Shown here: positions 2,803-42,637 of the stretch, in pieces
Position numbering within the stretch: position 1 is the stretch's first letter
How the letters are laid out: the number at the start of each line of letters is the position of its first letter
Assembly: GCF_009669325.1 (NCBI RefSeq)
Contig: NZ_SZWE01000001.1
Span: 682,402-746,401, forward strand
Origin: Roseovarius bejariae
GTDB lineage: Bacteria > Pseudomonadota > Alphaproteobacteria > Rhodobacterales > Rhodobacteraceae
Length of the DNA stretch: 64,000 nucleotides
Reading direction: 5' to 3'
Program-made: the position numbers and the translations under genes
The notes under the pieces: model-generated
What the model was told of the DNA's origin: nothing
Databases searched by the model: none
The model's input: the letters and a program-made list of their open reading frames with translations, nothing else

Positions 2803-2840
2803 CGGTGCGCCGTTAACAATTTGCTAAAACCCGATCCATA

Positions 2841-2867
2841 AACGGCCCCGCTCGATGCGGGGCCGTT
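2841..2867 (+). terminator. Rho-independent-type hairpin after the pseudoprotease gene
   Basis: Perfect 11-bp inverted repeat AACGGCCCCGC / GCGGGGCCGTT with a 5-nt loop, starting 38 nt after the stop codon at 2802 and followed by AACATTTTGG. The position and strong GC stem fit a terminator. The T-tract is short. Confidence 0.7.
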
Positions 2868-3071
2868 AACATTTTGGCAAGACTTTATAGCCACTTTGAA
2901 AACCGTCGCCAGAACGGCAAATCCAACAGAACGTTATGGCCCAGATGTGTTCAGCATAGCGAGGGGCCGCCTTGCCTGCCCCGGGCCGAATGCCTTGAAG
3001 AAGGTATAATCCAGTTTCGCAAACAGCGTGGGGGCGCTGCCGGGTGACCGGCCTGTAAACGGAGTTTCATC

Positions 3072-3362
3072 ATGCTCAAATCACCCCGACTCGCCCTTGG
3101 ACTTGCGGCCATCCTGCTGACCGGTGGTGCAAACGCGCAAAACTATATCACCCCGAAGGGATTTCAGAGCCAAACCGCGGCACGCACCACAGCGACACGA
3201 CCAGCTGCGGATCATCAGGGACAGTGGTGGACGCATCCCTTGGGCTGCGAATACTCCCGTGCCGGTTTGCCGGGAGAAACCGTTTGGTACATCATCGTCA
3301 ACACGATGCGGAACGGCTGCCCCCACCGGATCGTGATCGAAAGTCACAGCGGTGTCTACTGA
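3072..3362 (+). CDS. Small secreted protein of unknown function
   Basis: A 96-residue protein with a clear Sec signal peptide (MLKSPRLALGLAAILLTGGANA, cleavage before QNYITP). A Thr/Ala-rich linker is followed by a compact C-terminal half with two cysteines (PLGCEYS and RNGCPHR) that could form a periplasmic disulfide. A ribosome-binding site GGAG lies 7 nt before the ATG. I do not recognise the family. It stands alone behind the 2841 hairpin and converges with the decarboxylase gene; the two stop codons are only 3 nt apart. No function is proposed. Confidence 0.75.
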   Translation: MLKSPRLALGLAAILLTGGANAQNYITPKGFQSQTAARTTATRPAADHQGQWWTHPLGCEYSRAGLPGETVWYIIVNTMRNGCPHRIVIESHSGVY

Positions 3363-3365
3363 CCC

Positions 3366-6382: not shown

Positions 6383-6493
6383 GGATGGCAGAGTTGGCCC
6401 GAGGTCAGCCGGGTGTCAAGCGACAGGCGCGACTTGGGACAGAATGGCCATGCAATGTGCTTTTTCCAAGATCGCCTCTCGCAGCGCCGGGCG

Positions 6494-6718
6494 TCATGCG
6501 GGCAGCGTGTCCCCCATGACATAGGGGATAATCTCTTGGCGGGAGATCCCCAGCAGGGCCAATTCCGGGTCTGTCATGGCATGGAGCCGCATGAGCCGCT
6601 CAAAATGCATCCGGCTGAGCATATAACCGTTCATGCCGTGGGCGTGTTCAGCCATGTACAGGTCAAGCGCCTTGCGCCATGTATCGGGGACGAATTCGAT
6701 CTCGATACCTTGTGTCAT
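6494..6718 (-). CDS. Small DUF1127-like protein
   Basis: A 74-residue protein starting MTQGIEIEF; AAGGGG lies just upstream of this ATG. The C-terminal segment (TDPELALLGISRQEIIPYVMGD) matches the DUF1127 pattern of an ELA-x-LGI-x-R-x-x-I helix followed by a short aromatic/acidic tail. It is a clear relative of the neighbour at 6849-7076. Some DUF1127 proteins bind RNA or modulate phosphate, carbon or stress physiology in alphaproteobacteria, but nothing in this sequence fixes a role. Confidence 0.75.
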   Translation of the reverse strand: MTQGIEIEFVPDTWRKALDLYMAEHAHGMNGYMLSRMHFERLMRLHAMTDPELALLGISRQEIIPYVMGDTLPA

Positions 6719-6848
6719 CAGGAACCCCTTCCTTATCGAGGGTGGGCTCCTCCCATGTCGAAACAGTAGCACGAATCGTGCGTAAAATCATGGGGCACGA
6801 CCCGGGCGGCACATGCTGTTGCACTCATGCCGCCCGTAGCGCATGGGA

Positions 6849-7076
6849 TCAGGCGTAAAACAGATCGCGATAGACGTAGTGAACGATCTGTTCGCGCTTC
6901 ACACCGATTTCGGCAAGTTCCGCGTCGGACTTCGCTTCGAGCGCTTCGATCTGGTCGCGGCGCGAAGCGAAATGTGCGTGCGCTTCGAGCGCGCGGGACA
7001 GCGATGTCAGGAAGCTCGCAAAACGGGTGCGCAAACCACGGTCAGTGGTGTGAATGTCTGTGGTCAGTGTCGTCAT
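6849..7076 (-). CDS. DUF1127 domain-containing small protein
   Basis: A 75-residue cytoplasmic protein with an amphipathic N-terminal helix (TRFASFLTSLSRALEAHA) and the conserved DUF1127 tail (KSDAELAEIGVKREQIVHYVYRDLFYA). It shares the tail pattern with the small protein at 6494-6718, suggesting local duplication. Its 5' region at 7077-7170 probably holds the promoter. Members are often strongly expressed and stress-responsive, but the function here is unknown. Confidence 0.85.
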   Translation of the reverse strand: MTTLTTDIHTTDRGLRTRFASFLTSLSRALEAHAHFASRRDQIEALEAKSDAELAEIGVKREQIVHYVYRDLFYA

Positions 7077-7170
7077 TGGAAACCTCGTTGCCTTTGGCTG
7101 CTACGGTTTGGTTTCCTCCCTGACCTCAAACTAGGTCAGCTAGACTGACATGACCATCGTTCATTCGGCA

Positions 7171-7201
7171 AAGCCGGGTTGCACCAAGTGCATCCCGGCT
7201 T
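7171..7201 (-). terminator. Hairpin downstream of the Ala/Lys-rich protein gene
   Basis: Inverted repeat AAGCCGGG-t-TGCAC / GTGCA-t-CCCGGCTT with a 3-nt loop and one internal mismatch. It lies 10 nt after the stop codon of the 7211-7672 gene on the minus strand. There is no marked T-run, so terminator function is inferred from position and stem strength. Confidence 0.55.
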
Positions 7202-7210
7202 GCAAGGCCC

Positions 7211-7672
7211 TCAATTCACTGGGGTTTTCGACTTCGGCGCGACGGCCTTGGAGGGGCCCTCCGGCATCGCCGGGGGCTTGGACGGGGCGCGTGGGCGTTT
7301 GACTTTTTCGGTGGGCTCTTGTGAATCCTCGACGGTGGGCGTTGTCGATTTGGACTTGTGGGCCGCCGGTTCGGTTGTCTTGGCCATCATACCGGGCTTT
7401 TCATTGGCTTCGGCTGAAGGTGTCGTCTTTACCTTGGCCTTGGCGGACTTGGGTGCCTTTGCTTTGGTGACGGGTTTGGCCTTGGCTTTCGGTGCCGGCA
7501 CCTTTTCCGGGGTTTGGACTTGGGCCTTGAGGCCAGTTCCAACGGAAAAAGGATTGGTCTCAATCGCGGCCTGACCGATGACCTGCGCCACGCGCAGATT
7601 GGTTTCCATCATGTACCCGGCCACGCGCCATGCGGCGGCGGATAATTCAAGAGGCGTCGTGACATGTTGCAT
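7211..7672 (-). CDS. Phasin-like N-terminus with a Lys/Ala/Pro-rich tail
   Basis: A 153-residue protein. I chose the ATG at 7672 (MQHVTTPLELSAAAWRVAGY) because AAAGGAG sits 6 nt before it; an in-frame codon at 7690 has no such site. Residues 1-40 form an amphipathic helix reminiscent of phasin/antifreeze-like Roseobacter proteins (MMETNLRVAQVIGQAAIE). Residues ~50-153 are low-complexity, dominated by Lys, Ala and Pro (KAKAKPVTKAKAPKSAKAKVK), like histone H1 tails. It may bind DNA, a polymer granule or another polyanion. The assignment is tentative. Confidence 0.6.
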   Translation of the reverse strand: MQHVTTPLELSAAAWRVAGYMMETNLRVAQVIGQAAIETNPFSVGTGLKAQVQTPEKVPAPKAKAKPVTKAKAPKSAKAKVKTTPSAEANEKPGMMAKTTEPAAHKSKSTTPTVEDSQEPTEKVKRPRAPSKPPAMPEGPSKAVAPKSKTPVN

Positions 7673-7845
7673 GAAAAGCTCCTTTCGCAATGCCTATGCT
7701 GCGGTAGCAAAGCAGTGTAACAAAGGCATAACTAGCGGCCTAATGGACATCCGCACTGTCTTATCACAGAGACAGCACGTCGCCCAACCCGCACGCGAAT
7801 TCAGGCAACCTGCCGAAAAAAGAGGCGTTAGACAGAGGCCAAGGC

Positions 7846-8946
7846 CTATCCTACGTGGAACAATGTTGAGAACAACCGGGGGTCGATGCTGTCCGAGGCG
7901 AAGGTTTCACCTTCGGTCAGAATGCTAACGGCATCGTGGCTGTGCAAGCTTTCCTGATGGCTGGCCACCACGCTGAAATCACCCACCCGTGCGTCTTTCT
8001 GAAGGTGCTCACAGAAAAGCCGGGCCGCATCCTCCACGAAGATCGGATTGGCGGCATTCAATTCCGCAAAGGCTTGCTCATCCTCGCGCTTGACCATGAC
8101 TTGAGTTTCCGTGGGAACGGCCCCCCGGGCCATATCGATGAGATCTTCGAACCACAGGACATCACCTTCAACCACCTCCACCGACAGCCGGGCCACCGAG
8201 CGTTGCGAATGCGGTGTCGCCAATTGGCCGCGTGCCTGACGCGCGTGTTCGCTTAGTTCAAGCGAGCAGGGGCAGGTCGAGGAGTAGACATAATCGATAT
8301 GCATGTACTTGCGGCGCACACCGTTCTTCTCGACCAGTTCAAGCGCGATGTCATAATATTGGAACCCTTCCAGCCCCGAGCGCAGGGATTTCACCTTCAT
8401 CGGGTAGGAAAAACGCATTTGAATCCGGGCATCGATACTATCGAGGTCGGTCATGTAATCGTTGAGCGCGGCCTCGATCACCTCGAAGCTGAAAGTCTTC
8501 TCGGCGTGTTTGTAGAAACTGCGCATGATGCGCGACATGTTGATGCCTTTCTTGTCGGCATCAAGGCTGACCGTCCCCGTGACCGAGGTTTCCAGCGTCA
8601 GATCGCCATTGTCACGGGTGTGAAAACTGATCGGCAGACGGAAATTGGAGATTCCGACATGCTGCAAGTGCCGTCGCGCCCCCCGGATGAGCGAACTGGG
8701 GCCGTTTTGCAGGTCAGGCATCGTGGCCTTATAGGCCGCATCCACCTCGAAATCATGCGGATACTCGCGAGAGAGCGCAGGGTAATTCGATGCCCCCTGC
8801 CCCGGCAAAAGACGTGCCACGGCGGGGTCCAGATCGGCCACCTCTTCAGGGCTGGCCGATTTCGCCCAATTGCGCAGCACGTCAAGCGCCGCCTCGGCCT
8901 CGTCCCGGTCGGGCGATTGCTCAAGATCGGTCGGTCGGATGTTCAT
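7846..8946 (-). CDS. folE2: GTP cyclohydrolase FolE2
   Basis: A 366-residue GTP cyclohydrolase IB, which converts GTP to 7,8-dihydroneopterin triphosphate, the first step of folate (and often queuosine) synthesis. The conserved cysteine region STCPCSLELSEHARQARGQLATPHSQRS is present; the Cys is the metal ligand. The ATG at 8946 is preceded by GAGGGAG with 6-nt spacing. FolE2 enzymes accept metals other than zinc and are often induced by zinc limitation, but I see no obvious Zur palindrome in the 100-bp gap to the MATE gene. Confidence 0.95.
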   Translation of the reverse strand: MNIRPTDLEQSPDRDEAEAALDVLRNWAKSASPEEVADLDPAVARLLPGQGASNYPALSREYPHDFEVDAAYKATMPDLQNGPSSLIRGARRHLQHVGISNFRLPISFHTRDNGDLTLETSVTGTVSLDADKKGINMSRIMRSFYKHAEKTFSFEVIEAALNDYMTDLDSIDARIQMRFSYPMKVKSLRSGLEGFQYYDIALELVEKNGVRRKYMHIDYVYSSTCPCSLELSEHARQARGQLATPHSQRSVARLSVEVVEGDVLWFEDLIDMARGAVPTETQVMVKREDEQAFAELNAANPIFVEDAARLFCEHLQKDARVGDFSVVASHQESLHSHDAVSILTEGETFASDSIDPRLFSTLFHVG

Positions 8947-9048
8947 GGCATGCTCCCTCGTCCGTGCTGCCGCACCTATACATAATGCACGCGGCGCAGA
9001 ATTGCTATTCTCGGTATTGTTTACGCCGAAACCGACGCGACGGATCAC

Positions 9049-10422
9049 TTATTGAGGCTTTCGCGCCGACCATCCCCAAAACCGGGCCATCATGAAAAGG
9101 GCTGCAAGGGCAAGGCCCGTGGCCAGCCCGAGCCAGACACCGACGCCGCCCATCTCGAATGTGAACCCCAAGAGGTAACTCGACGGGATACCAATCCCCC
9201 AATAAGTTATCGCGGCAATCACCATGGGCACGCGGGTGTCTTGCACCCCGCGTAGAAGCCCAAGGGCGATCACCTGTCCGGCATCGACCAGTTGGAACAA
9301 GGCGGCCGCGGCCAAAAGCCCCGTTCCAAGGGCCAAAACAGCGGCGCGGTCCGGCTCGTCGGGGCGCATAAAGGCGCTGATGATCGGTTCGGGCAACACG
9401 ATGAAAACCAAAACGGTGACAAGGGCCGCCATGGTGGACAAAGCGATCACCACGCTGGCACCTGCGCGCAGGCCCTGCAAATCACCGCGCCCATGGGCAT
9501 GGCCTGCCCGCACCGTCGCCGCGTTGCTTAGCCCCAGATGCATCATGAAGGCGACCGAGGCCGCCTGAAGCGCGATACCATGGGCCGCCAAGGGTAAGGT
9601 GCCAAGCCAGCCCATCATCACCGAGGAGGCGGCGAAAAGGCCCACCTCGGCCAGGTTCGTGACCCCGATAGGCCAACCAAGGCGGAAGACACGACCGAAG
9701 GCCTCCGCGTCCGGACGCCAAAGCCTTTGGAACAAGGCGTGTTCCGGGGTCGCGCGGACAACGTAGATGACAAGCGCCACAAGGGAAACAAGATGCACCG
9801 TGACCGAGGCCACGGCAGCCCCTCGAATGCCCATCTCGGGCGCGCCGAAGTTGCCGAAGATCAGCATATAGTTAACCAAGGCGTTCACCCCGGCGGCCAA
9901 AACCGTGATCCAAAGAACGATGCGCGTTCGCTCCAGTGCGGCCAGGTACGATTTAAGCACCATCACCAGAAGGGCGGGCCAGATGGCCCAGCCGTTGATC
10001 AGGTTATACGCGCCTGCAAGGCGTGCGACCTCCTCGGTCTGGCCAAGGGCGCGCAGAATATCATCGGTGAACAGCAATAAAGGCAAAGCGAAGCAGCCAA
10101 ACAGAACCGAGGCCCAAAGCCCCATGCGGGTGACCCGCCGCACCTGCGCCCCCTCGCCTGCGCCTTGGGCCGCGGCCACCATCGGCATCACGGCCCATGC
10201 AAAGCCCGATCCCATGATGAAGAAGACGAAGAACATCTCACCGCCCAAAACACCGGCAGCCAAAGACTCCACGTTGTACCAACCCAGCATCGCCGCATCG
10301 GTCAGGGTGATCGCGAACTGCGCCAAATGGCTGCCCACCAAAGGCAATCCAAGGCCAAGGACGGCACGGGCGTGTTGGCGATATGTCAGGGCGTATTGCA
10401 TGGCTTCGCCATAGGCGGACAT
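9049..10422 (-). CDS. MATE-family multidrug/sodium antiporter
   Basis: A 457-residue inner-membrane protein with about 12 hydrophobic helices and two repeated MatE halves. The N-terminal half begins AVLGLGLPLVGSHLAQFAITLTDAAMLG and the second begins at the RVFRLGWPIGVTNLAEVG segment. MATE proteins export cationic drugs or metabolites using Na+ or H+ gradients; the substrate is not readable from sequence. It lies upstream of folE2 on the same strand. The start at 10422 lacks a strong Shine-Dalgarno sequence, and an ATG at 10401 is an alternative. Confidence 0.9.
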   Translation of the reverse strand: MSAYGEAMQYALTYRQHARAVLGLGLPLVGSHLAQFAITLTDAAMLGWYNVESLAAGVLGGEMFFVFFIMGSGFAWAVMPMVAAAQGAGEGAQVRRVTRMGLWASVLFGCFALPLLLFTDDILRALGQTEEVARLAGAYNLINGWAIWPALLVMVLKSYLAALERTRIVLWITVLAAGVNALVNYMLIFGNFGAPEMGIRGAAVASVTVHLVSLVALVIYVVRATPEHALFQRLWRPDAEAFGRVFRLGWPIGVTNLAEVGLFAASSVMMGWLGTLPLAAHGIALQAASVAFMMHLGLSNAATVRAGHAHGRGDLQGLRAGASVVIALSTMAALVTVLVFIVLPEPIISAFMRPDEPDRAAVLALGTGLLAAAALFQLVDAGQVIALGLLRGVQDTRVPMVIAAITYWGIGIPSSYLLGFTFEMGGVGVWLGLATGLALAALFMMARFWGWSARKPQ

Positions 10423-29769: not shown

Positions 29770-31320
29770 CTAGAACATCACCCCGGGCAGCCATGTGGCC
29801 AGCGCCGGCCAGAGCCAGACCAGCGTCACCCCGATGGCCTGTAGCACGATGAAGGGCATGACACCGCGGTAGATATGGCCGGTGGTGACCTCCTCGGGGG
29901 CGGCGCCGCGCAGGTAGAACAGCGAAAAGCCGAAAGGCGGTGTCAGGAAGGAGGTTTGCAGGTTGATCGCAAGGATGATGCCCAGCCAGACCGGATCGTG
30001 CCCCAGAAGGATCAGCGTGGGGGTGACCAGCGGCAGGACAATCACCGAGATTTCCACGAAATCGAGGAAGAACCCCATGAAAAAGACGATCACCATGGTC
30101 ACCAGAAGCGCGCCGGTCGCGCCGCCCGGCAGGTTTTCCAGCCAATACGCCACCCGCTCTTCCCCGCCGAGGCCGATGAAGACGAGGCTGAACATCCCCG
30201 CCGCGAGGATCGTGGCAAAGATCATGGCGGTCATGGTCATGGTCGAGGTCACGGCCTCGTGCACCACCTTTTCGCGCAGCACGTTGCGCAGGGCGGCCAG
30301 AAGGCCGATCACGCCGATCGCCGCAAGCGCGATATAGGCCGCGCCCGCCGCGTAGGAGCCGGCCCCGAGATCGCCGCGTTGCAAGCGCACCGGGAAAATC
30401 CCCGCCGCCACCGCCAGCAGGATCAGCGCCGCGGCGGAGGCGACGATAACACGGCGATAGCGGCCAAGGCGCGCGCCCGCCATCAAAAGCGCGCCCACCG
30501 CGCCCACCGCCGCCGCCTCGGTCGGGGTGGCAAGCCCGCCGAGGATCGAGCCCAGCACCGCGAAGATCAGCAGGACCGGCGGCACGATGGCACCCAGCAC
30601 CTCGGAACGGGCGGGTTTCGGCAGGCTGGCATCGGCAGGCGGCATATCCTGCGGGCGCAGGGCGCCGCGGGCCAGCACGTAAATCAGGTAAAGCGAGACA
30701 AGCACGAGGCCGGGGATCAGGGCGGCGGCAAAGAATTGCCCCACCGACAGGGCCTCGACCGCGAATTTGCCCTGTTCGTACTGCGCCTGTTGATAGGCGT
30801 TCGACATCACGTCGGCGAGGATGATCAGCAGGGTCGAGGGCGGGATGATCTGGCCCAGCGTCCCGGCGGTGCAGACGATGCCCGAGGCGACACGCGGATC
30901 GTATCCCGCTCGCAGCATGGTAGGCAGGGCGATCATTCCCATGGCGACCACGGTGGCGCCCACGATCCCCGTGGAGGCCGCCAGAAGCGCACCGACAAGG
31001 ACGACGGAAATGCCAAGTCCGCCGCGCAACTGCCCGAATGTGCGGCCCATGGTATCGAGCAACTCTTCGGCGATGCGGCTTTTTTCCAGAAGCGCGCCCA
31101 TCAGGACGAACAGCGGAATGGCGATCAGAACCTGGTTTGAAATAAGGCCGAAGACACGTTGCCCGAAGGCCCCCAGAAGCGAGATGTCCATCACCCCCGC
31201 AAGCCACCCCACATAGGCAAAGATCACCGCCACACCGGCGATGCTGAAGGCGACGGGAAAGCCCGAAAGGATCGCCACGACAAGGGCGGCGAACATCAGA
31301 AGGTCGAGATGGGCGCTCAT
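29770..31320 (-). CDS. dctM: TRAP transporter large permease (system 2, hut-linked)
   Basis: A 516-residue DctM with about 14 hydrophobic segments; an insertion near residues 300-340 makes it longer than system 1. Conserved motifs include IPLFVLMGALLEKS, ASTGIVGATVVAMGMIALPTM, GTLGQIIPPSTLLIILADV and LQTSFLTPPFGFSLFYLRG. The start at 31320 overlaps the dctQ stop as ATGA. The gene is part of the run that begins with hutI, so its substrate may be an imidazole carboxylate. Confidence 0.92.
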   Translation of the reverse strand: MSAHLDLLMFAALVVAILSGFPVAFSIAGVAVIFAYVGWLAGVMDISLLGAFGQRVFGLISNQVLIAIPLFVLMGALLEKSRIAEELLDTMGRTFGQLRGGLGISVVLVGALLAASTGIVGATVVAMGMIALPTMLRAGYDPRVASGIVCTAGTLGQIIPPSTLLIILADVMSNAYQQAQYEQGKFAVEALSVGQFFAAALIPGLVLVSLYLIYVLARGALRPQDMPPADASLPKPARSEVLGAIVPPVLLIFAVLGSILGGLATPTEAAAVGAVGALLMAGARLGRYRRVIVASAAALILLAVAAGIFPVRLQRGDLGAGSYAAGAAYIALAAIGVIGLLAALRNVLREKVVHEAVTSTMTMTAMIFATILAAGMFSLVFIGLGGEERVAYWLENLPGGATGALLVTMVIVFFMGFFLDFVEISVIVLPLVTPTLILLGHDPVWLGIILAINLQTSFLTPPFGFSLFYLRGAAPEEVTTGHIYRGVMPFIVLQAIGVTLVWLWPALATWLPGVMF

Positions 31321-31814
31321 GCGCTGTCCTTTCCGGCCAGAAGGCGCAACAGGATGGCCAGCGATTGCAGCGCCACCAGAAGGCAAAACAGCGGGATAAG
31401 CGATTTCAGCAGGAAGACCGCCTCGATCCCGCCCACGGATATCGGCCCCTCAAGGATTTTCCACGAATTGCGCACCGAGGGCCATGACCACCAGGCCAGC
31501 GCCGCCATGGCGGGCAGGAGCAGGACAAGATGCCCGGAGATGTCGATGCGGCGGCGGGTTGCGGGGCTGGCCTTGGCATAGAAGATGTCGACGCGGACGT
31601 GTTTGTCCACCAGCAGGGTAAAGCCCGCCGCAAGCATGAACAGGGTGGCGTGCAGGTACAAAACGCTTTCCTGCACCCAGATCGAGTTGACGCCAAAGAC
31701 ATAGCGCCCGATCACGATTCCGAACTGGATCAGCACCATGGCCAGCACCAGCCAGCGCAGGCCCATGGCGACCGCGCGGTTGAGCGCGTCGATATACCCG
31801 GCAAAACGCAGCAT
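31317..31814 (-). CDS. dctQ: TRAP transporter small permease (system 2)
   Basis: A 165-residue DctQ subunit with four helices and the conserved segment RYVFGVNSIWVQESVLYLHATLFMLAAGFTLLVDKHVRVDIFY. Its stop overlaps the dctM start, and its start lies 61 nt after dctP, a gap filled by a perfect stem-loop. Confidence 0.9.
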   Translation of the reverse strand: MLRFAGYIDALNRAVAMGLRWLVLAMVLIQFGIVIGRYVFGVNSIWVQESVLYLHATLFMLAAGFTLLVDKHVRVDIFYAKASPATRRRIDISGHLVLLLPAMAALAWWSWPSVRNSWKILEGPISVGGIEAVFLLKSLIPLFCLLVALQSLAILLRLLAGKDSA

Positions 31815-31840
31815 CCTGTCCCTCTTTCCGGTCCGGTGTT

Positions 31841-31868
31841 GTACGCGCGGGGGCCTTCCCGCGCGTAC
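31841..31868 (-). promoter_or_regulatory. Intercistronic stem-loop between dctP and dctQ (system 2)
   Basis: Perfect 11-bp arms GTACGCGCGGG / CCCGCGCGTAC with loop GGCCTT, 7 nt after the dctP stop codon. There is no T-run, which favours a 3' RNA-stability or partial attenuation element over a true terminator. Confidence 0.65.
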
Positions 31869-31875
31869 CCTTTGC

Positions 31876-32961
31876 TTAGTAGCCCATCACATGGGCGCGG
31901 GCGTTCATCTGCCCGTTGTCGGCATAGGTCATATAGCCCCCGACGCTGTCGCGATAGGCCACGAAGCTTTCGGTGATGCGGCGGACAAGCTCATCCTCGT
32001 CCTGGCGCAGCTCGTCGATCACCTCGGCGGCGGCGCTGCCCATGGCGTCGATCACCTCCTGCGGGAACTTCTTGACCTGAACGCCGTCCTCTTTCACCAG
32101 CTTGGCAAGCGCGGCGGCGTGTTTGGTCGTGTACTCGGTCCAGACCGGGTTGTAGAGGCTCTCGCAGGCCAGCGTGACCACCTGTTGCAGGTCCTCGGGC
32201 AGGTTGGCGAAGACCTCGGCGTTGACGCCGCATTCCTCGGCCGAGGAGGGCTCGCCCACACCGGGCCAGTAGTAGTTTTTCGCGACCTGCTGATAGCCCA
32301 GCGCGCTGTCGGTCCATGGGCCGATGAATTCGCCCGCGTCCAAGGCGCCGGTTTGCAGGGCCTGGAACATGGCGGGGCCGCTCATGGCCTCGGCGGCCAT
32401 GCCCAGCTTGGCGCACATTTCCGAAGCAAGGCCGGTGGTGCGGAACTTGAGGCCCTTGAGATCCTCGACCGAATTGATCTCGTTGCGGAACCAGCCGCCC
32501 CATTGCGGGCCGGAGTTGCCGCAGAGGAAGGGCTTGATGCCGAAGCGGCCATACATCTCGTCGTAAAGCGCCTGACCGCCACCGTGGTAGAGCCAGCCGA
32601 CCTGTTCATCGGCGCGCAGGCCGAAGGGTTGCGAGCCGAACAGCAGGATGCCCTTGGATTTCGAGCCCCAGTAGGCGGGCACGGCATGGTAAAGCTCGGC
32701 CGTGCCTTCGCTGACCGCGTCAAAGACGCCCTTGCCCGGCACCAGTTCGCCGGCGGCGAACAGCTTGACCTCGATCCGCCCGCCCGACAGCGTGGTGATC
32801 CGGTCGGCCAGCATTTGCGCCGCAACCCCCGGCCCCGGCAGGTTCTTGGGCCATGCGGTGACCATCTTCCATTGCTGCACGTCCTGCGCGATGGCCGGGG
32901 TCGCGAGGGGCGCCGCCGCGGCACCGACGGCCGCCGTTGTCATGAATTTCCGTCTGTCCAT
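31876..32961 (-). CDS. dctP: TRAP transporter substrate-binding protein (system 2), Tat-type signal
   Basis: A 361-residue binding protein of the TakP/2-oxo-acid subgroup. The ATG at 32961 begins MDRRKFMTTAAVGAAAAPLA, a twin-arginine-like signal ending at AIAQ. Mature features include WKMVTAWPKNLPGPGVAAQMLADRI and WFRNEINSVEDLKGLKFRTTGLASEM, with the conserved Arg for a carboxylate. GGGAG precedes the start. It lies only 29 nt after hutU, implying co-transcription with histidine catabolism. Confidence 0.92.
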   Translation of the reverse strand: MDRRKFMTTAAVGAAAAPLATPAIAQDVQQWKMVTAWPKNLPGPGVAAQMLADRITTLSGGRIEVKLFAAGELVPGKGVFDAVSEGTAELYHAVPAYWGSKSKGILLFGSQPFGLRADEQVGWLYHGGGQALYDEMYGRFGIKPFLCGNSGPQWGGWFRNEINSVEDLKGLKFRTTGLASEMCAKLGMAAEAMSGPAMFQALQTGALDAGEFIGPWTDSALGYQQVAKNYYWPGVGEPSSAEECGVNAEVFANLPEDLQQVVTLACESLYNPVWTEYTTKHAAALAKLVKEDGVQVKKFPQEVIDAMGSAAAEVIDELRQDEDELVRRITESFVAYRDSVGGYMTYADNGQMNARAHVMGY

Positions 32962-32990: not shown

Positions 32991-34664
<1,674 letters not shown>

Positions 34665-34678
34665 GTCGTTCGTCTCCC

Positions 34679-35824
34679 TCAATGCGCCAGCAGATGGCCG
34701 GCAATGATGTTGCGTTGAATTTCGGATGAGCCCTCGTAGATGCGCATGATCCGCAAATCGCGGGTGATACGCTCGACTGGGAAATCGCGGGTGTAGCCAT
34801 AGCCGCCGTGGATTTGCAGGGCGGTGTCGGCCACCCGGTCGGCGGCCTCGCTGGCGGTGAGCTTGGCCATGGCGGCGGCCTCGCTGAAGCGGGTGCCCAG
34901 ATCGCGTTGCCGGGCGGCTTCCAGTGCCGAGAGCCGCGCCCCCTGCATATCAAGCGCCATATCGGCCAGCATCCAGCGGATGCCCTGTTTCTCGCTCAGG
35001 GCCTCGCCACCAATCACCCGGTCCCTGGCATAGGTCTTGGCCGCATCCAGTGCCGCCTGTGCCATGCCGATACATTGCGCGGCCACCTCGACGCGGCCAT
35101 TGTCGAGCACCTTCATCGCGGTCTTGAAGCCCTGCCCCTCGGCGCCCAGAAGGGCATCACCGGGCAAATAGCAATCAAGGTTCAGGGTAAAGACATGCCC
35201 GCCCTTGAGGCCCATTGTCCGCTCGGGCGGCCCCGGCTCGAACCCCGGTGTGCCCTTTGGCAGCAAAAAGGCGCTGATGCCCCGGTGCGCCGCCGCTGGA
35301 TCGGTGACGGCATAGACCACCACCAGATCCGCAACCCCACCGTTCGAGATGAAGCACTTGGTCCCTTTCAGGCGCCAGCCATCGCCCTCGCGGGTGGCGC
35401 GGGTTTTCATATCCGCCGGGTCGCTGCCTGCGGTGGGTTCGGTCAGGGCAAACGCGCCCAGCACCTCGCCGGTGGCAGCCTTGGGCAGCCAATGCGCCTT
35501 TTGCGCCTCGGTTCCGCCGATCAGGATGGAATCGGTGGCAAGGTAATGCGCCGTCAGCGCCGATGCGGTCGAGCCACAGCCGCTGGCCACGATCTCGACC
35601 GCCCGCAAAAGCGCCGCCGCCGAGACCCCGGCCCCGTCGTAGTCCTCGGGCAGGTTCGCGCCCAGCATTCCGGCCTCGGCCAGAACACCCAGTTGGTCAT
35701 GCACGAACCGGGATGTTTCATCCACCTGCGCCGCCTTCGGGGCGATCTGTTCGGCCACGATCCGCTCCAAAAGATCGCAAAACAGGCGTTCTTCCTCGCT
35801 CAGCATATGAAACAGGCCCGTCAT
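34679..35824 (-). CDS. Acyl-CoA dehydrogenase embedded in the hut operon
   Basis: A 381-residue FAD-dependent dehydrogenase that introduces a 2,3-double bond in an acyl-CoA. It has signature 1 [11 protein letters not shown] (residues ~126-135) and signature 2 [35 protein letters not shown]. The catalytic base is Glu364 of IYEGS, as in short-chain/isobutyryl-CoA enzymes. Its start overlaps the CoA-transferase stop (ATGA). Substrate unknown; its position directly before hutU suggests imidazolepropionyl-CoA to urocanyl-CoA. Confidence 0.9.
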
Positions 35825-36987
35825 GCCACCACTCCCTTGTCCTTCAAGGCGGCCAGTGCCGCATCGTCCACGCCACAGAATTGCGACAGTATCTCGCCTG
35901 CATCATTGCCCAGACCGGGCGCGCCCGTATCCGCCACGGGCTTGCCCCCGTCGAACCAGACGGGTTGCCCAACCATCGGGCGGGGCCCGGGCCGGACCAG
36001 TTCGCGGGCCTCGGCCTGTGCGCTGCTGCTGGCTTGTGCGATGTCCCAGATGGGCGCGCTTGGCAGCTGAGCCTCGGCCAGTGCCACCATCGCCTCTTCG
36101 GTGCTGCGCGCGCGGCTCCAGCCCTCGATCAGGGTGCGCAATTCGGGTTCATGGGCAGTGCGGGCCTCATCCGTGGCAAAGCGCGCCTCGTCCGGCAGGC
36201 CCGGATGCCCGATCAACTCGGACAGCCGCGCGAATTGCGCGGGCGTCAGCACGGCGATCACCACCTGCCCGTCGGCGGTATCGAAACAGCCAAAGGGCGT
36301 GGACAGCGGATGGCGGTTGCCCACCCGCTGCGGGGTCTGCCCGGCATAGAGATGCAAGGCATGGCTGGTGGTCAGCAGGGAATACAGCGCGTCGTACATC
36401 GCGATATCCAGAACCGCGCCCCTGCCGGTGCGCGCCTTGTGTACCAGCGCGGCCAGTATCCCCCAACTTCCGAACAACCCGCCCATCAGGTCGGCGATCG
36501 ACTCGCCGGTTTTCAGGGGTGCGCCGCCCTCTTCGCCGGTGGCGGCCATCAGGCCAGACATGGCTTGTACCACCAGATCGTAGGCGGGCAGGTCGCGAAA
36601 CGGCCCGGTCTGCCCGAACCCCGAGACACGGGCATAGATCAGGCCGGGGTTGTCGTGGCGCAACTCCTCGGGGCCGAGGCCGATTTTCTCGGCCACACCG
36701 GGGCGGAAGTTTTCGACGACCACGTCACAGCCCGCCGCGATCCGGCGTGCCAGCGCCAGCCCTTCGGCATCCTTGAGGTTCAGGGCGATGCTTTTCTTGC
36801 CGCGATTGTTGAGGGAAAACAGCGCGCTTTCGCCGTCGAGAAACGGGCCGATGTGGCGGTAATCATCGCCGCGCTGCGGTTCAAGCTTGATGACCTCGGC
36901 CCCCAGATCGGCCAACAGGGAGGTGCAGTAAGGCCCCGCCAACACGCGGGTCAGGTCCAGCACCCGGATTTGATCGAGCGGTTTCAT
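35821..36987 (-). CDS. Family III (CaiB/BaiF) CoA-transferase embedded in the hut operon
   Basis: A 388-residue CoA-transferase that moves CoA between carboxylic acids through an aspartyl anhydride. The N-terminus [29 protein letters not shown] is diagnostic, and the catalytic Asp is residue 166 in [11 protein letters not shown]. It overlaps hutG upstream (ATGA at 36984-36987) and the acyl-CoA dehydrogenase downstream, so all three are translationally coupled. By analogy with CaiB/CaiA it would activate the dehydrogenase's substrate with CoA recycled from the product. Confidence 0.92.
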
Positions 36988-37784
36988 AGCTGCCCCTTTC
37001 GCGCCAGTGCGTCGAGCCGGGAGAGGATATCGGCCAGATGCCCGCGCAGGCGTTCGGCCTTGTCGTCGTCATAGGGCCATGGGGCCGCTTCCGCCGTCAG
37101 GTAGGTGGATTGCGCCAGTTCCATCTGGATGGCATGCACCCCGTCGCTTGGGCGGCCATAGTGGCGCGTGGTCCAGCCGCCCTTGAAGCGACCGTTGAGA
37201 ATGCTGGTATAGCCCTGCGCCGCCTCGCAGACCTGGCGGACCTCGGATTCCACCGCTGCGGCACAAGTGGTGCCATTGTTGGTGCCGATGTTGAAATCGG
37301 GCAGCGTGCCGTCGAACAGGAACGGTATTTCAGAGCGGATCGAATGGCAGTCGTACAGCACGGCGAAACCATGCCGCGCCTTGACGCGCTCAAGTTCGGC
37401 GCTCAGCGCCGCGTGATAGGGCGCGTGATAGGCCAGCCGCCGCCGTTCGGTTTCCGCCGCGTCGGGCGCCTGCCCCTCATGATAAATCGGGTGCCCGTCG
37501 AAATCGGTGACGGGGCAAAGCCCGGTGGTGTTCTGCCCGGGATAAAGGCTGATGCCTGCGGGGTCGCGGTTCACGTCGATGGCGTAGCGGTGAATACGGG
37601 TGCGAACCGAGGTCACCCCCTCCAGCAGACCCTCGTAGAGGTCATGGATGTGCCAATCGGTATCGGCCAGCGCGCGGCCCCCGTCGTTGAGCGCATCGTC
37701 GAGTCCGTCGGGCAGTTCGGTGCCGGTATGCGGCAGGCCCAGAACGACAGGGCTGTCGCCCCGGGTGATCTCAAGGAAACTCAT
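36984..37784 (-). CDS. hutG: N-formylglutamate deformylase
   Basis: A 266-residue metalloamidase that hydrolyses N-formyl-L-glutamate to glutamate and formate, the last step of the five-step histidine pathway. It shows [25 protein letters not shown] and [14 protein letters not shown], with His/Asp metal-ligand candidates. This enzyme works together with HutF, which is encoded divergently. It overlaps hutH by 4 nt. Confidence 0.95.
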
Positions 37785-39301
37785 AACGTCACCTCGACAC
37801 CCGTCGCCTGCGCCAGCGCATCGGCGCGGATCAGCCCCGCCGCCGCCTCAAGATCCGGGGCCATGTAGCGATCCGCGCCCAGCGCGGGGATCGTGTCGCG
37901 CAGGGTTGCAAGGCCCTTTTGCAGGCGCTCAGAGGTTTTCAACGGCGCGCGTGCCTCGACGCCCTGTGCGCCACAAAGCGCCTCGACCCCGAGGATCACC
38001 GAGAGGTTGGCGTTCATCCGCTTGAGGCGGCGCGCGCCATGGGCGGCCATGCTGACGTGATCCTCCTGATTGGCGGAGGTGGGCGTTGAATCGGTCGAAC
38101 ACGGATTGGCGAGGTGCTTGTTCTCGCTCATCAGGGCGGCGGTGGTGACCTCGGCGATCATGAAGCCCGAGTTCAGCCCCGGTGCGGGCGTCAGGAAGGG
38201 CGGCAAATCGAAGCTGAGCGTCGGGTCCACCATCAGGGCCACGCGACGTTGCGCAATGGCGCCGATTTCCGACAGGGCCAGCGCGATCTGATCGGCGGCA
38301 AAGCCCACCGGCTCGGCATGGAAATTCCCGCCTGAGAGGATGCCCGCCTCGGTCACCAGAGGGTTGTCGGTGACGGCGTTGGCCTCGATCTCAAGCGTCT
38401 GCGCGGCAAAGCGCAGAAGGTCCAGCGCGGCACCCGCCACCTGTGGCTGGCACCGGATGCAATAGGGGTCTTGAACCCTCGGGTCGCCCTCGCGGTGGCT
38501 TTCGCGAATTTCGCTACCGGCCATCAGGTCGGACATGGCCTGCGCCACGTCGATCTGTCCCGGCTGGCCGCGCAGGGCGTGGATGGCCGGTTGCAGGGGT
38601 TGGGTGGAGCCCATGATCGCATCGGTCGAAAGCGCCGAGGTGACGACAGAGGCCCGCAACATTCGCATCGCGTCAAACAGTGCCGCCAAGGCGCAGGCGG
38701 TGGAAAACTGTGTGCCGTTGATGAGGGCAAGGCCCTCTTTCGGGCCAAGCACCACGGGGGCAAGACCCGCCTGTTCCAGTGCCGCGCCACCGGGCAGGCG
38801 AGTGCCGTTCAGCCACGCCTCGCCCTCGCCGATCATCACGGCGGCCAGATGGGCCAGCGGCGCCAGATCGCCCGAGGCCCCGACCGAGCCTTGCGCCGGG
38901 ATCACCGGAGTCACGCCCGCGCCGAGCATCCCCTCAAGCTGCGCGCAGATATCCCAGCGCACGCCCGAGGCCCCCCGCCCCAGCGAGACAAGTTTCAGCG
39001 CCATCATCAGGCGGGTGGTGTCCGGCTCCACCGCCTCGCCCACGCCACAGCAATGCGACAGGATCAGGTTGCGTTGCAGGGTCTCGGTATCCTCGGGCGA
39101 GATGCGCACCGAGGCGAGTTTGCCGAAGCCCGTATTGACGCCATAGATGGGCACATCGCCCTGCGCCGCCTCGCGGACCACTTCGGCCGCCTGATCGACG
39201 GCCGCGCGGGCCTCGGGGGCCAGCCGTGCCGCGGCCCCATCGCGCCAGATCGCCTCGAAGGTGGCAAGGCGCGTGGCGCCGGGTTCAAGTGTCAATGGCA
39301 T
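37781..39301 (-). CDS. hutH: Histidine ammonia-lyase
   Basis: A 506-residue lyase that deaminates histidine to trans-urocanate. The ASG tripeptide that self-cyclises to the MIO cofactor is at residues 142-144 ([15 protein letters not shown]). Also present are [15 protein letters not shown] and [24 protein letters not shown] text (here [20 protein letters not shown]). I start at the ATG at 39301, which overlaps hutI by 10 nt; a longer in-frame extension is antisense-like noise. Confidence 0.97.
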
Positions 39302-40500
39302 GTTTGCCCCCCGAAAATCCGCAGTTTGAGTGAATTGATCCCGATCCGGTACGACAGTTCCGCCGGTGTCTCGACATCCCAAAGCGCCAGATCGGCGCGC
39401 TTGCCCGTCGCGATCACGCCGCAATCGTCCAGCCCCAGGGCGCGGGCGGCATTGCGCGTGGCCCCGGCCAGCGCCTCGGCGGGTGTCAGGCCGAAGAGGG
39501 TACAGGCCATGTTCATCGCCAGCAGCACCGACCCCATGGGCGACGATCCCGGGTTCCAATCGGTGGCGACGGCCATCGGCACCCCATGGGCGCGGAAGGC
39601 ATCAACGGGCGGTTTTTGCGTTTCATGCAGGGTATAGAAGGCCCCCGGTAAAAGCGTGGCAACGCTGCCCGCATCTGCCATGGCCTGCGCGTCGGCCTCG
39701 CCGGAATATTCCACGTGATCCACCGACAAGGCCCCATAGCGCGCGGCCAGGGGCGTACCGCCGAGGTTCGACAGTTGATCTGAATGCAGCTTGACCGGCA
39801 GGCCCAGTGCCTGCGCCGCGTCGAAAACGCGGGCGATCTGGGCCGGGGTAAAGGCGATCCCCTCGCAGAACCCGTCGACCGCATCCACCAGCCCTTCGGC
39901 ATGGGCGGCCCTGAGCGCGGGAATGCAAACCTCGTCGATATAGGCATCGGCATCCATGCCCTTGGGTGCCGCATGGGCCCCGAGGAACGAGGTCACGACC
40001 CGCAGCGGGCGGGCCTGTTCGATGGCCCGTGCCACGCGCAGCATCTTCAATTCGGTGTCACGATCCAGACCATAGCCCGATTTGACCTCGACCGTGGTGA
40101 CCCCTTCGGCAATCAGGGCATCGGCACGGGTCAGGGCCTGCGCCAGCAACTCGGCCTCGGGCGTATCACGGGTGGCGGTGACGGTCGAAACGATCCCGCC
40201 CCCGGCGCGCGCCACCTCCTCGTAGCTGGCCCCTTGCAGACGCATCTCGAATTCCCGCGCGCGATTGCCGCCATGTACGATATGCGTGTGGCAATCGATC
40301 AGCGCGGGGGTCAGCAACCCGCCCTCGCCGTCGATGTCCTCGGCATCGGTCGGTGCCGGGTCAACCTCGGCCATCGGCCCGACCCAGGCGATCCGATCCC
40401 CTTCGACAAGCAGGGCGGCGTCACTCAGCAGGTCATACCCCGCCCCTTCATCAGCCATCTGCGCGACAGACACGTTCTTGATCAGCAAGCGGTGCGTCAT
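39292..40500 (-). CDS. hutI: Imidazolonepropionase
   Basis: A 402-residue amidohydrolase that opens imidazolonepropionate to N-formimino-L-glutamate. It carries the metal motif [44 protein letters not shown] and [11 protein letters not shown]. First gene of the minus-strand hut operon; it faces hutF across a 71-nt gap that contains the HutC operator. Confidence 0.97.
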
Positions 40501-40521: not shown

Positions 40522-40550
40522 CCTACATAACGGTAATATGTAGGTACATA
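40522..40550. promoter_or_regulatory. HutC operator: two overlapping palindromes between hutI and hutF
   Basis: CCTACATA-N7-TATGTAGG (40522-40544) shares its right arm with TATGTA-GG-TACATA (40537-40550). The ATGTA...TACAT core resembles known HutC sites. It sits centrally in the 71-nt divergent gap, so one repressor can control both operons. Confidence 0.8.
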
Positions 40551-40571
40551 TTTTGTCAATGGAGTCGACCA

Positions 40572-41936
40572 ATGCAGGAAATCCATGCGCAACAGGCACT
40601 TATGCCGCAAGGCTGGGTCAGTGATCTTCGGCTGACCATCGACGCGGGCCGCATCGCGCGAATCTCTCATGGGGCAGCAGAGGGCCTGCCATCGGTCGAT
40701 ATGCTGCTGCCTGCGCCGGTGAACCTGCACAGCCACGCCTTTCAACGCGCCATGGCAGGCCTGACCGAAACCCGCGGCCCCGACCCGCGCGACAGTTTCT
40801 GGACATGGCGGCAGCTCATGTACCGCTTTCTCGACCGCCTCACGCCCGATCATGTGCAGGCCATTGCCGAACTGGTCTTCATGGAGATGCTGGAGGCCGG
40901 GTACGGCGGGGTGGCCGAATTCCATTACCTGCACCACGATATCGGCGGCGTGCCCTATGCCAACCTGCCCGAGATGGCACAGCGGATCGCCACGGCGGCG
41001 CAGGGTGCGGGGCTGGGCCTGACCCTGCTGCCGGTGCTTTACATGCAGGGCGGATGTGACGGGCGGGCCTTGCAGGGCGGGCAACGGCGGTTCGGATGCG
41101 ATGCCGAGTTGTTTGCACGGCTGCATTCGGACAGCGCCGCGATCATCGCCGAGGGCCCCGAGGATTTCGGCATCGGTATCGCGCCGCATTCCCTGCGCGC
41201 CGTCACGCCCGAGGCCCTGGACAGTGTGCGTGGCATCAGCCCCATCGGCCCGATCCACATGCACCTTGCCGAACAGGTGGCCGAGGTCGAGGAAGTCGAG
41301 GCGCATCACGGCGCGCGGCCCGTGGAATGGCTTTTGAACCATACGGATGTGACCCCCGACTGGTGCCTGATCCACTGCACGCAGATGACCGACGCAGAGA
41401 CCAAAGGGCTGGCCGAAACCGGCGCCGTGGCCGGGCTGTGCCCGATCACCGAATCCAGCCTTGGCGACGGTATCTTCAACGGCACCGATTACCGCGCCGC
41501 CGGGGGGCGTTTTGGCGTGGGGTCCGACAGCAACATTCACATCGCCCTGTGGGAGGAACTGGCGACGCTGGACTATTCGCAGCGCCTGCGCGACCGAAGC
41601 CGCGCCGCCATGGCCACCGCCGAACAGTCCACCGGCCGCGTGGTGTTCGACGCCGTCACCCAAGCCGGGGCACAGGCCGCCGGACGCGCATCGGGGCGCA
41701 TTGCCGAAGGCCGGTTCGCCGATCTGATCGGCATCTCCACCGACAATGAATTCCTGTGCAACCGCCGCGGCGATACCGCCCTCGACAGCCTCATATTCAC
41801 CGGCCGGGGCCGCGCCTGCGTCACCGATGTCTGGAGCGCCGGGCGCCACATGGTAAAGGAGGGTCGCCACATTGACCGTGATCGCATAGTAAGGGATTTC
41901 ATCAAGGTGACCCAGCAACTCGGGCAAGAGATATGA
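40572..41936 (+). CDS. hutF: Formimidoylglutamate deiminase
   Basis: A 454-residue amidohydrolase that deaminates N-formimino-L-glutamate to N-formylglutamate and ammonia. It contains the metal motif LLPAPVNLHSHAFQRAMAG, IHMHLAEQVAEVEE, WCLIHCTQMT and RFGVGSDSNIHI. The presence of HutF together with HutG identifies the five-step pathway. Its stop overlaps the hutC start (ATGA). Confidence 0.95.
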   Translation: MQEIHAQQALMPQGWVSDLRLTIDAGRIARISHGAAEGLPSVDMLLPAPVNLHSHAFQRAMAGLTETRGPDPRDSFWTWRQLMYRFLDRLTPDHVQAIAELVFMEMLEAGYGGVAEFHYLHHDIGGVPYANLPEMAQRIATAAQGAGLGLTLLPVLYMQGGCDGRALQGGQRRFGCDAELFARLHSDSAAIIAEGPEDFGIGIAPHSLRAVTPEALDSVRGISPIGPIHMHLAEQVAEVEEVEAHHGARPVEWLLNHTDVTPDWCLIHCTQMTDAETKGLAETGAVAGLCPITESSLGDGIFNGTDYRAAGGRFGVGSDSNIHIALWEELATLDYSQRLRDRSRAAMATAEQSTGRVVFDAVTQAGAQAAGRASGRIAEGRFADLIGISTDNEFLCNRRGDTALDSLIFTGRGRACVTDVWSAGRHMVKEGRHIDRDRIVRDFIKVTQQLGQEI

Positions 41937-42637
41937 CGACATCGAGCCGCCTGTCATGGAAGGACGTGCGTGACGAGATTCACGACGCGATCCTGACCGG
42001 GCGCTATGCCCCGGGCGACCGCCTGCCGCGGGATGCGGATATCGCCGAGGATCTGAACTGTGCCCGGTCGACCGTGCAGCGCGCGATGCAGGACCTCTCG
42101 GACAGCGGCCTGATCGAACGCCGCCGCAAGGGGGGCACCCGTGTCCGCCGCGATCCGGTCACGCGGGCCACACTGGACATTCCGATCACGCGCCGCGAGG
42201 TCGAACAGAAAGGTGGGCGGTATAGCTACCAGTTGCTCCACAGCGCCGAGGAACCCGCCCCGCGCGAGGTTCTGGCCGCGTTCGAACTGGGCACCGCGCC
42301 GCGCCAGATGCAAAGGGTCGAGGCCCTGCATTTGTCAGACGGCAAACCCTATCTTCTCGAAGATCGCTGGATCTGTCTGGAAACCGTGCCCGAGATTCGC
42401 GATCTGGACCTCCAACGCGAAAGCGCGAACGAATGGCTCGTCGTCAACAAACCCTATAGCCGCTGCGACGTTAAATTCTACGCGATCTCGGCGGATGATC
42501 ACGTGGCCGACGTGCTTCAGACGGCCCCGGGCGCGGCGCTGTTCGTGATCGAGCGGACCACCTGGATCGACACCGCACCGATCACCACGGTCAAGGGGAT
42601 CACCGCACCGGGGTATCAACTCCTGACCACGACCTGA
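41933..42637 (+). CDS. hutC: Histidine utilization repressor HutC (GntR family)
   Basis: A 234-residue GntR/HutC-type regulator. The winged helix-turn-helix spans residues ~8-75 (VRDEIHDAILTGRYAPGDRLPRD...CARSTVQRAMQDLSDSGLIERRRKGGTRV), followed by a UTRA ligand domain. HutC proteins respond to urocanate. It is translationally coupled to hutF, and the palindromes at 40522-40550 are the likely operator, giving autoregulation. Confidence 0.95.
   Translation: MTTSSRLSWKDVRDEIHDAILTGRYAPGDRLPRDADIAEDLNCARSTVQRAMQDLSDSGLIERRRKGGTRVRRDPVTRATLDIPITRREVEQKGGRYSYQLLHSAEEPAPREVLAAFELGTAPRQMQRVEALHLSDGKPYLLEDRWICLETVPEIRDLDLQRESANEWLVVNKPYSRCDVKFYAISADDHVADVLQTAPGAALFVIERTTWIDTAPITTVKGITAPGYQLLTTT

What the first reader, a model, noticed from the sequence alone, without database searches (positions are those of the whole stretch)
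34679..36987. CoA-transferase and acyl-CoA dehydrogenase wired into the histidine operon: a possible imidazolepropionate-to-urocanate module
Seen: in the minus-strand hut operon, hutG overlaps a family III CoA-transferase gene by 4 nt. That gene overlaps an acyl-CoA dehydrogenase gene by 4 nt, and hutU follows 14 nt later. Known: CaiB plus CaiA form a cycle in which CoA is exchanged between the saturated and unsaturated acid while a dehydrogenase-fold flavoprotein interconverts them. Neither enzyme has a place in the textbook hut pathway. Inferred: the pair converts imidazolepropionate (dihydrourocanate) to urocanate at the CoA level, with urocanyl-CoA donating CoA to the next substrate, and HutU consumes the urocanate. 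The catalytic residues Asp166 and Glu364 are intact.
Basis: partly seen in the sequence, partly recalled or inferred. Interest (0 to 1): 0.78.

Follow-up and report, generated by a model that had tools for sequence, protein, structure and literature searches.

The report
Imidazolepropionate-to-urocanate side branch of histidine breakdown
Two extra genes inside a bacterial histidine-breakdown operon probably let the cell also eat imidazolepropionate, a microbial product linked to diabetes, by turning it back into the normal intermediate urocanate; the gene link recurs in distant bacterial groups, but the chemistry has not been tested.

Summary
In detail: on the minus strand hutI, hutH, hutG, a family III CoA-transferase, an acyl-CoA dehydrogenase (ACAD) and hutU follow each other with 4-nt overlaps and a 14-nt gap; Asp166 and Glu364 are present. 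It is not a quirk of this strain. In a sample of the window's order the ACAD is in 21 of 292 genomes; 20 of these 21 carry hutU (157 of 292 overall) and 16 have the pair within 10 kb of it. The pair also stands in the hut cluster in the 2 Burkholderiales and directly before hutU in the 5 Bacillota genomes found to carry it. All 41 pair ACADs share a one-residue deletion and substitutions rare among 105 others. Best reading: CoA is swapped from urocanyl-CoA to imidazolepropionate, the ACAD oxidises the thioester, and HutU takes the released urocanate. The link to histidine metabolism is well supported; substrate and direction are inferred and untested (confidence 0.62). Against it: in 9 of 35 pair-bearing genomes the pair is not near hutU, and some clusters add a Rieske oxygenase.

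The parts
35821..36987 (-). Family III (CaiB-type) CoA-transferase, 388 aa; proposed urocanyl-CoA:imidazolepropionate CoA-transferase
   Evidence: Asp166
34679..35824 (-). Acyl-CoA dehydrogenase, 381 aa; proposed imidazolepropionyl-CoA dehydrogenase
   Evidence: Glu364 and family-specific deletion after Tyr94
32991..34664 (-). hutU, urocanate hydratase
   Evidence: 952 bits, cut-off 375; ATG 14 nt after the ACAD stop
36984..37784 (-). hutG, N-formylglutamate deformylase
37781..39301 (-). hutH, histidine ammonia-lyase (ATG start chosen by inspection)
39292..40500 (-). hutI, imidazolonepropionase
40536..40551 (.). Perfect 7-bp inverted repeat ATATGTA-GG-TACATAT between hutI and hutF, candidate HutC operator
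   Evidence: binding untested
40572..41936 (+). hutF, formimidoylglutamate deiminase
41933..42637 (+). hutC, repressor
   Evidence: 221 bits, cut-off 220
31876..32961 (-). TRAP solute-binding protein (DctP type), hut-linked in relatives with or without the pair
   Evidence: start by inspection
31317..31814 (-). TRAP small membrane subunit (named by order and size)
   Evidence: conserved neighbour
29770..31320 (-). TRAP large membrane subunit (named by order and size; start by inspection)
   Evidence: conserved neighbour

Best explanation
The pair is a feeder branch of histidine catabolism. Inferred cycle: (1) the CoA-transferase moves CoA from urocanyl-CoA to imidazolepropionate, releasing urocanate; (2) the acyl-CoA dehydrogenase oxidises imidazolepropionyl-CoA to urocanyl-CoA and passes electrons through ETF and ETF-quinone oxidoreductase to the respiratory chain; (3) HutU takes the free urocanate. 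CoA is recycled, so only a small priming amount of another acyl-CoA (for example succinyl-CoA or acetyl-CoA) is needed; no CoA ligase was seen among the hut genes. Shown here: gene order, families, catalytic residues, recurring association with hut genes in several lineages, a distinctive ACAD subfamily, and an ETF-QO domain elsewhere in the genome. Inferred: substrate, direction and CoA donor.
For: Gene order and overlaps. Order sample: ACAD in 21 of 292, hutU in 20 of these 21 against 157 of 292 overall, hypergeometric P = 2.4e-5 without correction for relatedness; CoA-transferase beside the ACAD in 21 of 21; hutU the direct neighbour in 12 and within 10 kb in 16. Bacillota: 5 genomes found (2 of 199 and 4 of 348, the query's own genome in both), CaiB-ACAD-hutU adjacent in 5 of 5. 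Burkholderiales: 2 of 250 (one is the query's own genome), both in the hut cluster. Control: of 80 ACAD loci, 4 of 5 pair loci show hut genes in the fetched flank and 0 of 75 others do, though many of the 75 lie on short contigs. A HutC over its cut-off follows the pair in Comamonas and lies five genes from it in Mesorhizobium; a HutC relative (40% identity) diverges from the pair in two Sinorhizobium plasmids; palindromes like the window's lie before the pair in the Mesorhizobium and both Sinorhizobium loci. Pair ACADs: Ser88 in 41 of 41 against 0 of 105, Asp98 41 of 41 against 16 of 105, Gly/Ala103 41 of 41 against 7 of 105, and no residue in 41 of 41 where 90 of 105 others have one. Of five plasmid regions with a non-pair CaiB relative, four have an aromatic-ammonia-lyase-type gene next to it or within two genes, one does not. 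ETF-QO domain. Worked-out analogue: methylsuccinate entering the itaconate pathway by CoA-transferase plus dehydrogenase (PMC12290011, abstract and one section read).
Against: No assay, expression or growth result supports the substrate. In 9 of 35 pair-bearing genomes the pair is over 10 kb from hutU or on another contig, 7 of the 9 with a LysR gene beside it, and G162 has only a hutU fragment with an in-frame stop. Some clusters add a Rieske oxygenase, so a modified imidazole acid could be the true substrate. A quick IQ-TREE did not recover Bacillota and proteobacterial pair ACADs as one clade, though the tree holding them together had the higher likelihood. The CaiB tree does not separate pair CaiBs from those of the lyase operons. 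The operator-like palindrome was absent, at up to two mismatches, from several loci with the same hut order.
Confidence: 0.62

Rival explanations
1. Same cycle, but the physiological substrate is a modified imidazole acid (N-methyl-imidazolepropionate or a related analogue), trimmed by the Rieske oxygenase in some clusters, with imidazolepropionate a side substrate.
For: VanA-type Rieske oxygenase, reductase, HisC-like transaminase and GlcD-like oxidase adjoin the pair in Gemmobacter and Mesorhizobium plasmids, and a Rieske relative lies in the hut-pair region of G108 and G1101.
Against: The window and 13 loci with hutU next to the pair have no match to that Rieske oxygenase, its reductase or the transaminase at E <= 1e-8; the neighbouring HutU is a typical urocanate hydratase by family.
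Confidence: 0.13
2. The pair serves an unrelated acyl-CoA (for example glutarate or a short-chain acid) and only shares regulation with hut.
For: ACAD and CaiB families are broad; best NCBIfam scores are to acryloyl-CoA reductase and succinate-glutarate CoA-transferase, both below cut-off. Loci with the pair and LysR but no hut genes in view exist.
Against: hutU recurs as neighbour in three groups; 0 of 75 non-pair ACAD loci show hut genes; the 88-103 stretch differs from 105 other ACADs. Glutamate-pathway neighbours were not searched systematically.
Confidence: 0.12
3. The pair runs the other way: it reduces urocanate to imidazolepropionate at the CoA level as an electron sink or to limit urocanate build-up.
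For: The chemistry is reversible in principle; the crotonyl/butyryl-CoA couple is near -10 mV (PMC5691135, passages). Homologues 66-67% identical to the Virgibacillus ACAD are listed from Sporomusa and Natranaerobius, which I recall as anaerobes (context not examined).
Against: Clusters include uptake systems and regulators; in L140 and L141 no hutH match lies in the fetched stretch, which fits an imported substrate (hutH is elsewhere in both genomes; L141 is only 9.4 kb).
Confidence: 0.08
4. Chance insertion of a mobile gene pair into hut without functional meaning.
For: Several copies lie on plasmids.
Against: Recurrence with the same order and 4-nt overlaps and in distant lineages.
Confidence: 0.02

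Closest known systems
Textbook hut pathway with HutF/HutG branch
   Same: hutH, hutU, hutI, hutF, hutG, hutC present and over cut-off
   Different: Two added genes for a CoA-thioester side branch that the standard pathway lacks
Itaconate cluster with methylsuccinyl-CoA dehydrogenase (PMC12290011, abstract and one section read)
   Same: A CoA-transferase plus an acyl-CoA dehydrogenase bring the saturated analogue of the pathway's acid into an existing pathway
   Different: Dicarboxylic acids; there the CoA ester is processed further, whereas HutU uses free urocanate
CaiB/CaiA of carnitine metabolism
   Same: Family III CoA-transferase with an ACAD-fold partner and CoA recycling (recalled)
   Different: 119 of 413 and 165 of 540 bits against the CaiB and CaiA models
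Urocanate reductase UrdA (PMC10882135, passages)
   Same: Same couple, urocanate and imidazolepropionate
   Different: UrdA reduces urocanate in respiration; here CoA thioesters and the oxidative direction are proposed. No sequence comparison was made
Clostridial FldA/AcdA aryl-propionate system (recalled)
   Same: Family III CoA-transferase and ACAD acting on arylacrylyl/arylpropionyl-CoA
   Different: Reductive and anaerobic; not compared by sequence here

Membership tests
hut operon / HutC regulon | Arrangement inside a run of hut genes | tested here: met
   Overlapping genes within hutI-H-G-[pair]-U; transcription not measured
hut operon / HutC regulon | HutC operator upstream | tested here: inconclusive
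   Perfect palindrome at 40536; similar sites in 8 of 26 other loci scanned, 18 without; binding untested
Family III CoA-transferases (PF02515) | Profile match and catalytic Asp | tested here: met
   398.2 bits, cut-off 23.3; Asp166
Acyl-CoA dehydrogenases | Full-length family match and catalytic Glu | tested here: met
   Solved short-chain/butyryl-CoA dehydrogenases among the best matches; Glu364
CaiB L-carnitine CoA-transferase | NF002914 cut-off 413 bits | tested here: not met
   119.3 bits
CaiA crotonobetainyl-CoA dehydrogenase | NF002885 cut-off 540 bits | tested here: not met
   165.3 bits
Acryloyl-CoA reductase AcrC | NF042972 cut-off 640 bits | tested here: not met
   370.6 bits
Succinate-glutarate CoA-transferase | NF052585 cut-off 750 bits | tested here: not met
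   294.2 bits
Imidazolepropionate-to-urocanate enzyme pair | Activity with imidazolepropionate and urocanyl-CoA | not testable with these tools
   Needs enzyme assay

The most novel reading that the evidence does not exclude
A cross-phylum CoA-cycling module dedicated to imidazolepropionate, part of a larger imidazole-acid salvage system in which a GlcD-like oxidase and HisC-like transaminase return imidazolelactate to histidine, a Rieske oxygenase strips N-methyl groups, and the pair returns imidazolepropionate to urocanate; it would supply genes for degrading a diabetes-linked microbial metabolite.
Probability: 0.45. Interest if true: 0.85.

Novelty: new variant of a known kind. Interest (0 to 1): 0.68.

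Why it matters
Imidazolepropionate, made by UrdA, is associated with type 2 diabetes (PMC10882135, passages). The paper searches on this showed no paper on genes for its degradation in the rows displayed; they cover an open-licence library only, and several lists were cut (20 of 26 rows, 40 of 60, 12 of 55). If the reading is right, the pair names candidate enzymes for breaking the compound down, explains how environmental bacteria recover the product of urocanate respiration, and gives a simple marker (CaiB-ACAD beside hutU) for finding such bacteria.

Tried and rejected
Thiourocanate/ergothioneine role for HutU: the window HutU and the six HutU proteins of three Bacillota loci score below the thiourocanate hydratase cut-offs. 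Structure prediction was not run: the tools return no coordinates and the folds are clear by sequence. Growth of Pseudomonas (now Comamonas) testosteroni on imidazolylpropionate and imidazolyl-lactate, reported in 1973, is recalled; that paper is not held, and no citation of it was seen in the 40 of 60 rows. The rank of Bacillota and proteobacterial ACADs as one clade is favoured, not settled (five long-branch rows were dropped).

Full report
Observation. The minus-strand order hutI (39292-40500), hutH, hutG (36984-37784), CoA-transferase (35821-36987), ACAD (34679-35824), hutU (32991-34664) and TRAP transporter genes is as described, with two 4-nt overlaps and a 14-nt gap. hutF and hutC lie divergently (40572-42637). 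The hut proteins pass their NCBIfam cut-offs, hutC only just. Asp166 and Glu364 are present. The genome has six PF02515 matches; this one ranks third.

Is it more than local chance? Among 292 sampled genomes of the window's order (the window's own included), the ACAD (E <= 1e-100) is in 21 and hutU in 157; 20 of the 21 carry hutU (hypergeometric P = 2.4e-5, no correction for relatedness). The CoA-transferase is beside the ACAD in all 21. hutU is the direct neighbour in 12 (G000, G074, G090, G276, G185, G273, G092, G117, G290, G024, G006, G281) and within 10 kb in 4 more (G108, G012, G274, G254), where LysR and HutC relatives stand between and the TRAP genes follow the pair. It is 30 kb away in G255 and far off in G111, G225 and G248; G162 has a hutU fragment with an in-frame stop and a weak HutH-type match. 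In a class-wide sample of 303 genomes, 5 matched at E <= 1e-110, 4 of them new: G1101 holds the pair 5 kb from hutU, with hutH, a Rieske relative and a HisC-like transaminase relative; G1320, G1096 and G1138 have hutU elsewhere.

Outside Alphaproteobacteria, 2 of 250 Burkholderiales matched (E <= 1e-105; one is the query's own genome). Both carry the pair in a cluster with hutI, hutU, hutH, HutC or a HutC-like regulator, an ABC transporter and LysR, 7-9 kb from hutU. In Bacillota 2 of 199 (order sample, E <= 1e-140) and 4 of 348 (class sample, E <= 1e-150) matched, the query's own genome in both, so 5 distinct genomes; CaiB-ACAD-hutU are adjacent in 5 of 5. With the named genome loci L001, L002 (both in a hut operon) and L003 (pair without hut genes in view, hutU elsewhere) that makes 35 genomes: 34 carry hutU and 26 have the pair within 10 kb of it. 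A negative control comes: of the 80 ACAD loci kept, 5 are pair loci and 4 of these show hut genes, while 0 of the other 75 do; many of the 75 lie on short contigs.

Plasmids. Of 24 records with an ACAD match, 13 regions were fetched and 11 were not. Twelve hold the pair; the Sporomusa one does not. Four have it inside a hut operon: Paracoccus alcaliphilus, P. aminophilus, Pseudorhodobacter (no hutG match) and Thioclava (hutU in two tblastn pieces). Two Sinorhizobium plasmids have a HutC relative diverging from the pair and an amino-acid ABC transporter like that of the Paracoccus hut operons. Mesorhizobium AR02 has hutC and an amino-acid ABC transporter on one side, and a Rieske oxygenase, reductase, HisC-like transaminase and GlcD-like oxidase on the other; Gemmobacter has the latter set, and one search shows that its region is also in the genome counted above as G255. 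Four (Leisingera, Pseudosulfitobacter, Paracoccus yeei, Tritonibacter) have the pair beside LysR without hut genes in view.

Clues to the substrate. The Comamonas cluster contains, besides hut genes and the pair, a HisC-like transaminase over its cut-off (608.6 of 540 bits) and a GlcD-like oxidase below its cut-off (283.4 of 567.9). This suits return of imidazolelactate through imidazolepyruvate to histidine, and of imidazolepropionate to urocanate; growth of this genus on both acids was reported in 1973 as I recall, but that paper could not be read. CaiB relatives outside the pair in Rhizobium, Sodalis and Agrobacterium plasmids lie directly after an aromatic-ammonia-lyase gene and before 3-hydroxyacyl-CoA dehydrogenase and enoyl-CoA hydratase genes; in P. 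aminophilus an annotated hutH is two genes away; in Palleronia there is none. The three lyases tested fit hutH best but fall below cut-off (523.2 of 524, 508.1 of 524, 381.3 of 539); the Rhizobium regulator is over the HutC cut-off (247.4 of 220), and its ABC ATPase and binding protein match betaine-type models best, below cut-off. This suggests, but does not show, a CaiB subfamily for acids of the urocanate kind.

The ACAD as a subfamily. FastTree joined all 41 pair ACADs (36 proteobacterial, 5 Bacillota) as one clade among 146 tips with support 0.77. A quick IQ-TREE of 72 rows (24 pair) recovered each group (100 each) but not their union. With 66 rows, five long ones dropped, the tree holding the 24 together was 42.5 log units better than the free quick search, p-AU 0.937. 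One origin is favoured, not proven. A post hoc column scan gave Ser88 in 41 of 41 against 0 of 105, Thr91 in 40 of 41 against about 1 of 105, an aromatic residue at 94 in 41 of 41, no residue after position 94 where 90 of 105 others have one, Asp98 in 41 of 41 against 16 of 105, and Gly or Ala at 103 in 41 of 41 where 82 of 105 others have Phe, Tyr or Trp. From recalled knowledge of medium-chain ACAD this helix lines the acyl pocket; loss of bulky side chains would fit a ring-bearing acyl group. In the CaiB tree (52 tips, 11 not from pairs) the smallest group holding the 41 pair CaiBs also takes in L142, L143, L144 and L037 (support 0.86).

Regulation. A perfect 7-bp inverted repeat (40536-40551) lies between hutI and hutF. 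With up to two mismatches it occurs once in the window and 0 times on average in 20 mononucleotide shuffles. Of 26 other loci scanned 8 had a match: hut promoter regions of L084, L123 and L124, before the pair in L082, L093 and L091, before the TRAP genes in L122-L124, and one away from the pair in L090; 18 had none, among them hut-operon loci such as L001, L002, L081, L083 and L085. It is a candidate HutC site only.

Mechanism. Imidazolepropionate is the saturated analogue of urocanate, so CoA transfer plus alpha,beta-dehydrogenation gives urocanyl-CoA, whose CoA can pass to the next imidazolepropionate, freeing urocanate for HutU. The crotonyl/butyryl-CoA couple is near -10 mV (PMC5691135, passages), so oxidation by ETF and ubiquinone is reasonable, and an ETF-QO domain is encoded in the genome. 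The closest worked-out precedent found is the itaconate cluster, where a CoA-transferase and methylsuccinyl-CoA dehydrogenase bring methylsuccinate into the pathway (PMC12290011, abstract and section 12). UrdA catalyses the opposite net reaction (PMC10882135, passages). A Rieske-dependent role is not general: the window and 13 loci with hutU next to the pair have no match to the Mesorhizobium Rieske oxygenase, reductase or transaminase at E <= 1e-8; one (L127) has a weak match to the oxidase.

Verdict. The pair is a real and recurring part of histidine catabolism (my estimate about 0.9). The imidazolepropionate-oxidising CoA cycle is the best single reading (0.62); modified imidazole acids, an unrelated acyl-CoA and the reverse reaction remain. 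Ten paper searches were made; no displayed row was a paper on this reaction, several lists were cut, and the terms for urocanyl-CoA or imidazolepropionyl-CoA gave 0 papers. PMC13320830 (passages) treats formation of imidazolepropionate; PMC7921117 held none of the degradation or reversal terms asked for.

Noticed in passing
L142, L143, L162 (about 900-9900): Aromatic-ammonia-lyase gene, CaiB, 3-hydroxyacyl-CoA dehydrogenase and enoyl-CoA hydratase with an ABC transporter (betaine-type by best match in L142) and, in L142, a HutC-type regulator: a possible CoA-dependent pathway for histidine betaine or ergothioneine.
   Followed up: partly
L139:2952-4592, L140:11502-13232, L141:1829-3478: A second, diverged HutU paralogue (48-50% to the Virgibacillus HutU) in the pair region of three Bacillota loci; below the thiourocanate hydratase cut-offs.
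   Followed up: partly
L086:2872-7527, L091:11296-16152, L121:13289-14413, L158:2729-3781: VanA-type Rieske oxygenase or its relative near the pair, in two loci with reductase, HisC-like transaminase and GlcD-like oxidase; candidate N-demethylation of methylated imidazole acids.
   Followed up: partly
window 29770-32961: TRAP transporter whose binding protein has 33 close relatives in 292 order genomes, at least 20 of them within 8 kb of hutU: a candidate urocanate or imidazole-acid importer.
   Followed up: partly
G162:C1:1520665-1521234: Fragment of hutU with an in-frame stop in a genome that keeps the pair with LysR; looks like a decayed hut gene.
   Followed up: no
L049:1062-2284: Lachnospiraceae ACAD with an adjacent weak (28%) CaiB match and no hut genes in view; may be a different CoA-transferase/ACAD system.
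   Followed up: no
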